From: Roseivivax sediminis
Lineage (GTDB): Bacteria; Pseudomonadota; Alphaproteobacteria; Rhodobacterales; Rhodobacteraceae
Length of the DNA: 58,777 nt
Assembly: GCF_900112685.1 (NCBI RefSeq)
Contig: NZ_FOMS01000018.1
Location: forward strand, 1 to 58,777
Direction: 5' to 3'
Within the stretch, counting starts at the first letter, position 1. Each line of letters opens with the position of its first letter. Shown piece by piece: positions 1,404 through 3,902 of the stretch. The translations under genes and the position numbers were made by a program. The notes under the pieces are model-generated. The model saw only the letters and a program-made list of their open reading frames with translations, ran no database searches and was not told where the DNA came from.

Positions 1404-1601
1404 TCAGCGTGCACCGGGCGCCGAGAGATACAGTGGCGCAAACGCGTCGCGGATCATGGATGCCGTGGAGGCGGGCAGGGCGAGCGCCGGCTGGAACCGC
1501 GTGTTCGGACGATCGGTCACCGGCGCCTCGGTCTTCAGCGCAAGCGCCGGTTCGGCGGCAAGCGATGCGGTCAGCACGGCCAGGGCAAGAAGCGGTTTCA
1601 T
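1404..1601 (-). CDS. Small putative secreted protein, 65 aa
   Basis: Unrecognised. The protein starts MKPLLALAVLTASLAAEPALA, a good Sec signal peptide with a probable AxA-type cleavage near residue 21, followed by about 44 residues rich in Pro, Ala and Thr. It shares strand and neighbourhood with the two 76-residue exported proteins upstream but does not carry their module. AGG lies about 9 nt before the ATG. The signal peptide is the main reason to believe it is real; the mature part is low in information. Confidence 0.45.
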   Translation of the reverse strand: MKPLLALAVLTASLAAEPALALKTEAPVTDRPNTRFQPALALPASTASMIRDAFAPLYLSAPGAR

Positions 1602-1663: not shown

Positions 1664-1894
1664 TTACTGGTAGGCGCGGACGAGTCTTTCGATCTTGGCG
1701 CCGACGTCGCTGTTGCTGTCGCCGGAGTTGATCACGTTGAGCAGCGTGACGATTTCGGCGTTCGAGAGCGTGGAGACATCCACGTTCGGAGCATAACGCT
1801 CGATCTTGACCTGAGCGGCATCGTGCGAGGTCACAGCGGCGGCGGGGATCGCGGCGGTTGCGGCGACGGCGAGGGAAGCGAGGAGGGTTTTCAT
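1664..1894 (-). CDS. Small secreted single-module protein, copy 1 (76 aa)
   Basis: Unknown function. Residues 1-23 are a Sec signal peptide (MKTLLASLAVAATAAIPAAA). The rest is one copy of a ~42-residue module with the pattern Y-A-P-N-V-D-V-S-T-L-S-N-A-E, then a hydrophobic helix TLLNVIN and S-x-D-S-x-S-D before a final amphipathic helix. By my count it is identical at 67 of 76 positions to the next gene upstream (1959-2189), including the signal peptide, and the leader before the ATG (GACAAAGGA) is also duplicated, so the pair is a recent tandem duplication. Three diverged copies of the module make up the protein at 3048-3626. Confidence 0.8.
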   Translation of the reverse strand: MKTLLASLAVAATAAIPAAAVTSHDAAQVKIERYAPNVDVSTLSNAEIVTLLNVINSGDSNSDVGAKIERLVRAYQ

Positions 1895-1958
1895 CGGTGT
1901 ATCCTTTGTCTTGCGTGTCTGAAGCAGCTCGGGCGCACGAGGCCCGGGGCCGAAGAGG

Positions 1959-2189
1959 TTATTGGTAGGCGCGGACGAGGCTTTCGATCTTGGCGCTGAC
2001 GTCGCTGCGGCTGTCGCCGGAGTTGATCACGTTGAGCAGCGTGGCGACTTCGGCGTTCGAGAGCGCGGCGACATCCACGTTCGGCGCGTACCGCTGGATC
2101 TTGACCTGTGCGGCGTCGTGCGAGGTCACGGCGGCTGCGGGGATTGCGGCGGTTGCGGCGACGGCGAGGGAAGCGAGGAAGGTTTTCAT
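1959..2189 (-). CDS. Small secreted single-module protein, copy 2 (76 aa)
   Basis: Tandem paralogue of the 1664-1894 gene with nine substitutions by eye; three of these cluster in the S-D-S-x-S-D region and the following helix. The chosen start is the ATG at 2189, preceded by AAAGGA, which gives a protein the same length as copy 1 with the signal peptide at the N-terminus. The frame is open further upstream, but that extension has no signal character. Function unknown. The product is expected in the periplasm or outside the cell. Confidence 0.8.
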   Translation of the reverse strand: MKTFLASLAVAATAAIPAAAVTSHDAAQVKIQRYAPNVDVAALSNAEVATLLNVINSGDSRSDVSAKIESLVRAYQ

Positions 2190-2763
2190 CGGTGTGTCCT
2201 TTGTCATGTGGCGGCACCCGAAGGTGCTATGAGAGGGTCGGAGTGTCTTGCCCTCCGATGATTGGGAGTTGGGATGCCGCGGCGGACCTGCCAATCTGCG
2301 CAAGTTCAGTGCAGGGCTCACCGGAACTTGCGCTTGAATGTGATTTGCAGTCGCCCCATCGCGTGATTACGCCGAATAAATGCTTTTATAATCAATAAGA
2401 TGATTGATATCTTTGCGGTCCGCTCCCGGCATTTTCCGTGATATGGGCTGGGCCTGTAGCCCCTAGAATAGCCGAGAACAGGTTCTGTTTTTAAGCGCAC
2501 AAGTCAAAAGTGAAATGTGCCTCGCGGCGCGTTTACGATCAATGGCCGCTGCGTGATCCATATTGCAGTTTTGGGCGGTGATCGCGCTCTGTGGCGACGC
2601 AAAAGAAAAGGCGCCGGAGCAGCAGGGACTGTCTCCGACGCCAAGGCGTGTCCAAATGGTGGACGGGTATAATACGTTATATCGTAATAATTCCGGGATG
2701 CAACCTGTTTCGAGATTTCACGCCTGAGGCTCACTTGGCGCTGCGTGGCGGCGCGATAACCGG
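2190..2763. other. Long non-coding stretch before tRNA-Trp
   Basis: No convincing gene. Two minus-strand open frames (2318-2500 and 2504-2734) lack family features, signal peptides or good ribosome sites. Parts near 2370-2420 and 2660-2700 are much richer in A and T than the rest of the window and could hold promoters for the minus-strand 76-aa genes, but I cannot pick a clear -35/-10 pair. Confidence 0.5.
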
Positions 2764-2790
2764 TTGACGCTCCCGCGCCGAAAATTTAAT
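2764..2790 (+). promoter_or_regulatory. Probable promoter of tRNA-Trp
   Basis: TTGACG (2764-2769) and TTTAAT (2785-2790) resemble sigma-70 -35 and -10 boxes; each matches the consensus at five of six positions. The 15-nt gap is shorter than the ideal 17. The -10 box ends 13 nt before the mature tRNA. Confidence 0.55.
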
Positions 2791-2803
2791 GAGCGCTGGC
2801 CGG

Positions 2804-2879
2804 AGGGGTATAGCTCAGTTGGTAGAGCGACGGTCTCCAAAACCGTAGGTCCCGGGTTCGAGCCCTGGTGCCCCTGCCA
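2804..2879 (+). tRNA. tRNA-Trp (CCA)
   Basis: A 76-nt cloverleaf. The 7-bp acceptor stem pairs AGGGGTA with TGCCCCT. There is a D-arm (AGCTCAGTTGGTAGAGC), an anticodon loop CTCCAAA with anticodon CCA, a TTCGAGC T-loop, discriminator G and an encoded CCA end. A run of T follows at once. It lies upstream of secE as in many alphaproteobacteria. Confidence 0.97.
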
Positions 2880-2993
2880 TTTTTTCTTTCCTGAAAGCAG
2901 CGCGTAATCGGCGCGGCCCGGGTGTCTCCCAGACACGTGTCCGGCCGGCCGGACGCCGCAAGCCGGCCGCTGCGATCGGTGTGGGCCATCCAC

Positions 2994-3023
2994 ACGAAAA
3001 CGGCGGGCCCGAAGGACCCGCCG
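2994..3023 (-). terminator. Terminator of the three-module secreted protein gene
   Basis: Read on the minus strand, a 9-10 bp GC stem with one bulged T is capped by a TTCG tetraloop and followed by TTTTCGTG. It lies about 25 nt after the stop codon at 3048 and faces the tRNA-Trp gene, so it separates the two converging units. Confidence 0.8.
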
Positions 3024-3047
3024 GTTCGTCAGATGTATGCCATGTCC

Positions 3048-3626
3048 TTACTGGACGTAGGCTTCGATCTCGTTCTCGATGTCGGCGGAATCCGACTGCT
3101 CGATCATCACCAGGATCGCGTCGACCTGCGGATCGCTCAGCGTGGAGACATCCACGTTCGGTGCCGCCTGGTTGATCATGGCGATCTCGGCTTCCGTGGC
3201 GCTATTGCCCAAAGCGGCCATGTCGTCGCCCATCAGAAGCTCTTCGATGCGGCCCGCACGATCCGATTCCGACATCTCGCTGTTGAGGACGCTCAGAGCG
3301 GCATCCACTCGTGCCTGCGGCAGCTGGCTGTAGTCCACGCCGTCGACGTATTGGTCAAGCTGCGTGCGCTCTGCCTCGGTCAGCTCTGCGCCGCTAACGG
3401 CGGTCATGTCGTCGCTCATCAGCGCCTGCAGCTGCGCTTCCGCGTCGCTGCGGTTGTCGGTGCTGTTGATGATGTTGAGCGCCTGATCGACCTGCGGCTG
3501 CGACCAAGTGGAGATGTCGGCATCGGGCACGTATTGCTGGATGCGTGCGATCTCGTTCGAGGTGGCCGACATCGCGGCGGTTGCTGCGGTCAGGGTCAGG
3601 GCGGAAGCCATCAGGATGCGTTTCAT
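3048..3626 (-). CDS. Secreted protein with three tandem modules (192 aa)
   Basis: Unknown function. After the signal peptide (MKRILMASALTLTAATAAMSA) come three repeats of about 42 residues, starting near IQQYVPDADIS, LDQYVDGVDYS and INQAAPNVDVS. Each runs Y/A-x-P-D/N-x-D-x-S, then x-V-D-x-A/I-L-x-x-I/L-N/E, then S-x-x-x-x-D, then a short helix ending EELLM or EAYV. The third repeat contains PNVDVSTLS, identical to the 76-residue proteins at 1664-1894. The start is the ATG at 3626, with AAGGAG about 9 nt upstream; an ATG at 3671 would push the signal peptide inward. The gene is monocistronic and convergent with tRNA-Trp. Confidence 0.85.
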   Translation of the reverse strand: MKRILMASALTLTAATAAMSATSNEIARIQQYVPDADISTWSQPQVDQALNIINSTDNRSDAEAQLQALMSDDMTAVSGAELTEAERTQLDQYVDGVDYSQLPQARVDAALSVLNSEMSESDRAGRIEELLMGDDMAALGNSATEAEIAMINQAAPNVDVSTLSDPQVDAILVMIEQSDSADIENEIEAYVQ

Positions 3627-3902
3627 GTCTCGATCTCCTTCGATCAACTCGTCTCGTGTCATTCTTTTCATCCGCGGCGGCGCCGCGGCGCTGCGAATGC
3701 CAATTCGGCTTCGCTATGGTCCAAGAACGGCACCGATCGCTTGGTCGTTCCGACAGAAATTTCCGTCTTCACGGCCAGTTGACGGAACTTGAGCGGAGGG
3801 GGGCGCGGCGGCCGCGGCGACCGATGGTCCTGGGTCTTGCGTCCCGCCGCCCTTGGCCGTATGTCGCGTCCGTTGGCTGACACCAGATCGAAAGGCTGCC
3901 AG

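What the first reader, a model, noticed from the sequence alone, without database searches (positions are those of the whole stretch)
1664..3626. Family of exported proteins built from a ~42-residue module, in one and three copies, around tRNA-Trp
Two tandem 76-residue proteins (67 of 76 positions identical by hand count) each carry one module. A 192-residue protein 0.9 kb away carries three diverged modules. All have signal peptides and no family I recognise. The module reads Y-x-P-N/D-x-D-x-S-x-L, a helix with a LL-x-x-I-N pattern, S-D-x-x-S-D, then a second helix: probably a compact two-helix unit. Recent duplication plus internal repetition beside a tRNA suggests an expanding, possibly interaction-related secreted family. 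This is my leading candidate for something undescribed.
Basis: partly seen in the sequence, partly recalled or inferred. Interest (0 to 1): 0.75.

Follow-up and report, generated by a model that had tools for sequence, protein, structure and literature searches.

The report
Stress-linked exported three-helix modules, Roseivivax
Marine roseobacter bacteria carry an apparently undescribed family of small exported proteins built from one helical module; the long form looks to be switched on by the cell's general stress response while the short form has its own separate promoter, and what the proteins do outside the inner membrane is still unknown.

Summary
Two 76-aa exported proteins (67/76 identical) and a 192-aa three-module protein flank tRNA-Trp in a Roseivivax genome. 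The module is about 53 aa and is predicted as three helices, not two helices in 42 aa. The window's proteins match no Pfam or NCBIfam family at its cut-off and no solved fold. The profile hits 66 of 394 genomes sampled from the bacterial family and only the own genome of 385 sampled from the class. In 41 of 56 genomes read the genes lie around tRNA-Trp: single-module arrays towards tuf, the multi-module gene towards secE.

New here: two promoter classes. Multi-module genes carry the EcfG general-stress promoter GGAAC-N17/18-GTT (30 of 35; single-module genes 2 of 95; random windows 2.0%), and the genome has a phyR-nepR-ecfG-kinase locus. Array leaders carry another promoter (32 of 53; followers 0 of 43) followed by a hairpin near the predicted mRNA start.

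Best reading: envelope proteins made of helical beads, one arm stress-induced, one separately expressed. Regulation is well supported by sequence; the biochemical role is inferred.

The parts
1664..1894 (-). single-module exported protein A, 76 aa; second gene (follower) of the two-gene array
   Evidence: 88% identical to B
1959..2189 (-). single-module exported protein B, 76 aa; first gene (leader) of the array
2238..2260 (-). predicted hairpin near the 5' end of the array mRNA
   Evidence: fold of this stretch -9.3 kcal/mol, z -1.72; mean z of the 31 aligned leaders -2.8; 5' end predicted, not mapped
2261..2302 (-). promoter-like element of the array, a diverged form of the GTGATTT ... CCYANNT element
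   Evidence: alignment; model match 2294-2234, E 1e-4 in 677 kb, the window being one of the 31 training rows; it fails the strict pattern
2804..2879 (+). tRNA-Trp (CCA), landmark between the two gene classes
3048..3626 (-). three-module exported protein, 192 aa
3408..3569 (-). module 1 (residues 20-73)
3222..3389 (-). module 2 (residues 80-135)
3051..3203 (-). module 3 (residues 142-192)
3726..3751 (-). EcfG-type promoter GGAAC-N18-GTT upstream of the three-module gene; the only GGAAC-N17/18-GTT in the window

Best explanation
A lineage-restricted family of exported, all-helical proteins of Roseivivax and other roseobacters. One module of about 53 residues (three helices) is used as a single bead, in arrays of small proteins, or as 2-4 beads joined by short linkers. 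The multi-module gene belongs to the EcfG general stress regulon: stress would lead to phosphorylated PhyR, PhyR would take NepR off EcfG, and EcfG would transcribe the gene from GGAAC-N17/18-GTT. The single-module genes are read as an operon from a different conserved promoter, and a hairpin near the start of the mRNA probably protects it. Both products leave the cytoplasm by their signal peptides and act outside the inner membrane, most likely as non-enzymatic envelope-protecting or binding proteins, the long acidic form being the multivalent stress-time version. Shown by sequence: family, module, export signal, two promoter classes, presence of the phyR-nepR-ecfG-kinase locus. Inferred: EcfG-dependent transcription, operon transcription, mRNA protection, place of action, envelope protection.
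For: GGAAC-N-GTT within 250 bases upstream of 30 of 35 multi-module genes, 2 of 95 single-module genes, 398 of 20,000 random windows; of the spacers 15-19 allowed only 17 (19 genes) and 18 (11 genes) occur. The same motif is reported for EcfG in Sphingomonas melonis, GGAAC-N17-20-GTT (PMC6599016, passages). The window genome has phyR (NF006623, 351 bits, cut-off 240), nepR (PF18557, over cut-off), an ECF sigma gene (NF009198, over cut-off) and an HWE/HisKA_2 kinase side by side with GGAAC-N17-GTT and GGAAC-N18-GTT in the phyR/nepR gap. NepR is found in 20 of 21 genomes with a multi-module gene and 9 of 23 with only single-module genes seen (P 9e-5); the one multi-module genome without NepR hit (L075) also lacks the motif. 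Multi-module genes away from the tRNA site (L093, L094, L103, L105) still have it. Array leaders: strict GTGA...CCxAxxT pattern in 32 of 53, followers 0 of 43, multi-module genes 0 of 35, random windows 110 of 20,000; hairpin in the 31 aligned leaders, mean z -2.8. Signal-like N-termini 129 of 131. PhyR of R. sphaeroides is reported to act in membrane stress (PMC5830050, passages).
Against: No expression, localisation or mutant data. Five multi-module genes lack the exact motif: L026 (GGAAAC, near miss), L075, two ORFs in L083, L102; the genomes of L083 and L102 do have NepR. One of nine Roseivivax (G003) has NepR but no multi-module gene at the locus. Genome-wide the bare pattern is only slightly above its control (208 against 161). 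21 of 53 leaders, the window's among them, fail the strict array pattern. NepR presence and gene presence share ancestry, so P is optimistic, and NepR was called at E 0.001, which may miss diverged ones. AlphaFold confidence is moderate (pLDDT 74 and 72; pTM 0.34 and 0.51). Nothing shows envelope protection itself.
Confidence: 0.5

Rival explanations
1. Secreted interaction family: the modules bind outside partners (surfaces, other cells, polymers), like tandem three-helix binding modules of surface proteins; arrays expand because partners change, and stress control of the long form is secondary.
For: Repeated module in 1-4 copies, array turnover (72 within-locus pairs, median identity 0.86, against 0.32 between loci), export signals. 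One weak fold neighbour is an albumin-binding three-helix module (1gjs, E 3.5).
Against: That fold match is not significant. The window pair shows dN 0.061, dS 0.172, that is constraint rather than diversifying change, from one pair. No secretion genes or partner genes were noted beside the arrays.
Confidence: 0.25
2. Single-module arrays are under the CenK-CenR envelope two-component system, which would make both arms envelope-stress genes.
For: GTGA sits just upstream of the -35 position, and 28 of 31 CenR sites (TGA-N8-TGA) in R. sphaeroides lie directly upstream of the -35 (PMC9275681, passages and part 1 of section 11). By eye several leaders show (A/T)GATT.. repeated after 11 bases.
Against: The first half-site is weak and was judged by eye; TTTC after GTGA is more conserved than in the published CenR list. 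The -10 geometry resembles RpoH promoters instead (A-12, T-9; PMC3441632, passages), but most leaders lack TTG at -36 to -34. No regulon member other than the arrays was found with the model in four genomes, which speaks against a broad regulator seen through the whole element.
Confidence: 0.2
3. Secreted antagonism: small identical proteins as bacteriocin-like toxins with the array as dosage.
For: Small, exported, nearly identical tandem copies in many loci.
Against: I noted no immunity-like or export-system gene beside the arrays (a partial survey); no PADLOC match beyond one weak AbiEi hit (E 0.005); mature single proteins are near neutral (median net charge -2) and the multi form is acidic (-21); control by a conserved housekeeping-like locus in 41 of 56 genomes.
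Confidence: 0.05
4. The promoter association is an accident of shared ancestry at one locus and says nothing about the gene.
For: Most multi-module genes compared sit at the same site (24 of 35 on the secE side with tRNA-Trp in the locus).
Against: Four multi-module genes outside the site keep the motif, the surrounding bases differ widely between genera, and random windows from the same loci have it in 2.0%.
Confidence: 0.07

Closest known systems
EcfG (PhyR-NepR) general stress regulon of Alphaproteobacteria
   Same: Promoter GGAAC-N17/18-GTT, matching the published Sphingomonas motif GGAAC-N17-20-GTT; cognate phyR, nepR, ecfG and kinase genes in the genome; that Sphingomonas table also lists a 'predicted small secreted protein'.
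   Different: The protein family itself is not one I could find described; EcfG dependence is not measured.
CenKR envelope regulon of Rhodobacter sphaeroides
   Same: Mostly exported or envelope proteins; TGA-type site just upstream of the -35.
   Different: First half-site weak in the arrays; extra conserved TTTC, -10 and hairpin.
RpoHI/RpoHII promoters of Rhodobacter sphaeroides
   Same: A-12 and T-9 spacing of the array -10.
   Different: TTG of the -35 is missing in most leaders.
GA-type albumin-binding three-helix module (PDB 1gjs)
   Same: Exported protein built of small three-helix units (architecture recalled).
   Different: Foldseek E 3.5, TM 0.34/0.38, not significant.
Pfam DUF4148 / DUF6491 (small exported proteins)
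   Same: Weak matches in 5 and 3 of 19 single-module proteins (best E 0.005 and 0.02).
   Different: Not matched by the window proteins; the call does not show cut-offs for these members; likely signal-peptide similarity (inference).

Membership tests
EcfG general stress regulon (multi-module gene) | GGAAC-N16..20-GTT promoter upstream | tested here: met
   window 3751-3726; 30 of 35 multi-module genes
EcfG general stress regulon (multi-module gene) | phyR, nepR and ecfG in the genome | tested here: met
EcfG general stress regulon (multi-module gene) | EcfG-dependent transcription under stress | not testable with these tools
   needs a mutant
EcfG general stress regulon (single-module genes) | GGAAC-N-GTT promoter upstream | tested here: not met
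   2 of 95; neither window gene
CenR regulon (single-module leader) | TGA-N8-TGA directly upstream of the -35 | tested here: inconclusive
   second half conserved, first half weak, judged by eye
RpoH promoter (single-module leader) | TTG at -36 to -34 with A-12 and T-9 | tested here: inconclusive
   -10 fits; TTG present only in a minority by eye
Any Pfam or NCBIfam family | score over the curated cut-off | tested here: not met
   window proteins; for relatives only E-values are shown, best 0.0013
GA-type albumin-binding three-helix module | significant fold or sequence match | tested here: not met
Mobile or phage-borne gene | relatives in plasmids, phages or viral contigs | tested here: not met
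   (three-module protein or its alignment only)

The most novel reading that the evidence does not exclude
An undescribed exported module family forms a two-arm envelope system of roseobacters. One arm is an expanding array of single beads, strongly expressed from its own promoter on a hairpin-protected mRNA. The other is a multivalent stress version under EcfG, one of the first defined exported effectors of the general stress response in this lineage. The two arms share a target outside the inner membrane, so that stress changes the valency of the same binding unit.
Probability: 0.25. Interest if true: 0.65.

Novelty: new variant of a known kind. Interest (0 to 1): 0.5.

Why it matters
Little is known of the general stress response in this order: a 2018 paper on R. 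sphaeroides states that PhyR had until then not been analysed in any member of the Rhodobacterales (PMC5830050, passages). This family offers a testable exported marker of that response in roseobacters: one promoter class, one gene class, kept together across genera and found with NepR in 20 of 21 genomes. It also offers a natural comparison, one module under two unrelated promoters on the two sides of one tRNA gene, and a case of fast array turnover at an old site.

Tried and rejected
Known family: Pfam, NCBIfam, PHROGs, PADLOC and PDB sequence searches gave only weak hits. The window proteins reach no cut-off; among relatives the best were NFACT-R_2 (E 0.0013, 1 of 13), DUF4148 (0.0054, 5 of 19) and SilE (0.006, 1 of 13), where those calls show no cut-off. 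Known fold: Foldseek against PDB, best E 1.6 and 3.1. Mobile origin: nothing in plasmids, phages or viral contigs. Known RNA element: in seven sources only tRNA and Rhodo-rpoB. Enzyme: Cys in 1 of 96 single and 0 of 35 multi mature proteins, His in 73 of 96 and 11 of 35, with no column of the 173-module alignment above 0.81 identity. A wider regulon for the array element: in four genomes the best match outside module arrays had E 0.1. Age of the triplication: module identities do not settle it. Literature: nine searches listed no paper on this family; the library holds only openly licensed PMC papers.

Rows dropped. Of the 66 positive genomes, 44 were fetched; the 22 left out had the weaker hits. 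L049-L054, L056, L059, L062 and L063 were left out of counts as repeats of genomes already counted, judged by equal contig length. L095 had no usable start and is missing from promoter counts. 'Single-module only' means only single-module genes in the stretches fetched. Gene starts were chosen by rule. The 31 leaders were picked mainly by the GTGA pattern, so the GTGA conservation there is partly by construction; the -10 and the hairpin are not, and one search gives counts over all 53 leaders. One search's CA after the -10 was seen by eye.

Full report
Observation. The finding is real and in place. The two small genes (1664-1894 and 1959-2189, minus strand) encode 76-aa proteins identical at 67 of 76 positions; the third (3048-3626, minus) encodes 192 aa. 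The pair lies on the tuf side of tRNA-Trp (2804-2879), the long gene on the secE side, and all three run against secE, nusG and rplK. Searching the own genome with the long protein returned the two short ones at E 3e-9 and 8e-9; the only other match had E 0.2. A profile of the five modules placed three in the long protein.

Module. The unit is longer than reported. With relatives aligned (173 unique modules) the consensus runs from T-E-x-E-x-x-x-I-x-x-Y-A-P-N-V-D-V-S-T-L-T/S-D-x-Q-V to S-G-D-S-x-S-E-K and a last helix. AlphaFold2 gives three helices per module in both the single protein (pLDDT 72.1, 82-87 from residue 31 on) and the triple protein (pLDDT 74.2, pTM 0.34); the low pTM means that the arrangement of the modules is not predicted. 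No column is conserved like a catalytic residue (highest identity 0.81), so an enzyme is unlikely (inference).

Distribution. The genome belongs to Roseivivax: six of its eight same-genus genomes have contigs equal in length to named Roseivivax contigs. A single-module query hit 13 of 61 genomes, own included, with 9 of 9 of the genus. The 29-module profile hit 66 of 394 genomes of the family. In a class-wide sample of 385 it hit only the own genome; at least four of the others are of the same family. Named carriers besides Roseivivax are Puniceibacterium, Thalassococcus, Tropicibacter, Citreicella, Sagittula, Pseudoponticoccus and an uncultured Rhodobacteraceae bacterium.

Location. I read 56 genomes: 44 of the 66 positives, seven more Roseivivax and five named ones. 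In 41 the fetched locus holds tRNA-Trp. There, 24 of 27 multi-module genes lie on the secE side and 77 of 78 single-module genes on the tuf side, 73 of these antisense to the tRNA; a further 8 multi-module and 19 single-module genes lie in loci without it. The site is therefore old. The arrays are young: 72 within-locus pairs have median identity 0.86, leading copies of different loci 0.32. One Roseivivax (G003) has an array but no multi-module gene there. In 22 three-module proteins the same position is more alike between genomes (0.29-0.34) than different positions between genomes (0.23-0.29), but positions 1 and 3 of one protein are as alike (0.35), so the age of the triplication is open.

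Promoter of the multi-module genes. Aligning 24 upstream regions showed GGAAC, 17-18 bases, GTT. Counted over all usable genes, the exact pattern with spacers 15-19 lies within 250 bases of 30 of 35 multi-module and 2 of 95 single-module genes and in 398 of 20,000 random windows; the spacers used are 17 (19 genes) and 18 (11 genes). Of the two single-module exceptions one (L074) lies on the secE side and may be a reduced multi-module gene; the other (L037) has the match 235 bases upstream in a genome without a NepR hit. The five multi-module ORFs without it are L026 (GGAAAC, near miss), L075, two in L083 and L102. The motif is that published for EcfG in Sphingomonas melonis, GGAAC-N17-20-GTT (PMC6599016, passages). 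In the whole own genome the bare pattern is only weakly above its control, 208 against 161, so context matters; in the window the 17/18 form occurs once, at 3751-3726.

The regulator. Around the NepR gene of the own genome lie phyR, and divergently nepR, an ECF sigma gene and a kinase: PhyR family NF006623 351 bits over 240, NepR over the Pfam cut-off, sigma factor NF009198 324 over 270, HisKA_2 and HWE kinase domains over cut-off (the name EcfG rests on this neighbourhood). NF051865, NCBI's own NepR model, was matched only below its cut-off. The phyR/nepR gap holds GGAAC-N18-GTT towards nepR and GGAAC-N17-GTT towards phyR; two more matches in the 9 kb are probably chance. NepR was found in 188 of 394 family genomes and 9 of 9 Roseivivax. 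Of the 44 sampled genomes read, 20 of 21 with a multi-module gene have NepR and 9 of 23 with only single-module genes seen (P 9e-5). The exception, L075, also lacks the promoter. Shared ancestry makes this P optimistic.

Array promoter. The first gene of arrays has another element: GTGATTT, then CC(T/C)A..T at a nearly fixed distance. The strict pattern is upstream of 32 of 53 leaders, 0 of 43 followers and 0 of 35 multi-module genes, and in 110 of 20,000 random windows. A sequence model gave 35 matches at E up to 0.0014 in 63 sources, one per locus, including loci not used to build it such as L039 and L081; in four whole genomes the best match outside module arrays had E 0.1. The window's leader has a diverged form and fails the strict pattern. 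The 31 aligned leaders each fold a hairpin in the first 30 bases after the predicted start, mean z -2.8 against shuffles, single z from -1.3 to -4.7, with differing stem sequences. Hairpins at mRNA ends can slow decay (recalled), so these may be stable messages. The regulator is open: the GTGA position recalls CenR (PMC9275681), the -10 recalls RpoH (PMC3441632), and neither is met cleanly.

Mechanism. I commit to this: exported helical beads of the envelope, with a multivalent acidic form (median net charge -21, against -2 for single forms) made under EcfG in stress, and single beads made from a separate operon. Export rests on signal-like N-termini in 129 of 131 against 31 of 804 controls; the envelope-stress setting rests on the report that PhyR of R. 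sphaeroides acts in membrane stress (PMC5830050, passages). What the beads bind or protect is not shown.

Novelty. No family, fold or paper was found with the searches named. As an exported unknown in an EcfG-type regulon it is of a known kind; the modular build and the split of one module between two promoters at one locus are what I had not met before.

Noticed in passing
window 1404-1601 (-): A further small exported-looking ORF, 65 aa, just downstream of the array. It has one relative in the loci compared, in L027 at 50% identity (E 8e-10), also beside an array, so it is probably real.
   Followed up: partly
L068 6636-7539 and L069 6548-7451: A block of three single-module genes with its promoter lies twice in one genome (G402), once by tRNA-Trp and once on another contig: a segmental duplication of a whole array.
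   Followed up: partly
L093, L102, L105: Multi-module genes away from tRNA-Trp lie near an ORF that looks like ptsP (named by eye from its start), in three genomes: perhaps a second conserved site.
   Followed up: no
L026 827-1126 (-), L101 5846-6397 (-): Two of 132 module proteins have a lipobox-like signal (LAQC and LACA), so a few may be membrane-anchored lipoproteins.
   Followed up: no
L027 3999-6395: Roseivivax G003 has an array of five single-module ORFs, no multi-module gene at the locus, two lone single-module genes elsewhere (L028, L029), and still has NepR.
   Followed up: no
L076 11833-11927 (+), L068 1-84 (-): Rhodo-rpoB leader RNA (RF03074) is matched downstream in two of the seven sources scanned.
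   Followed up: no
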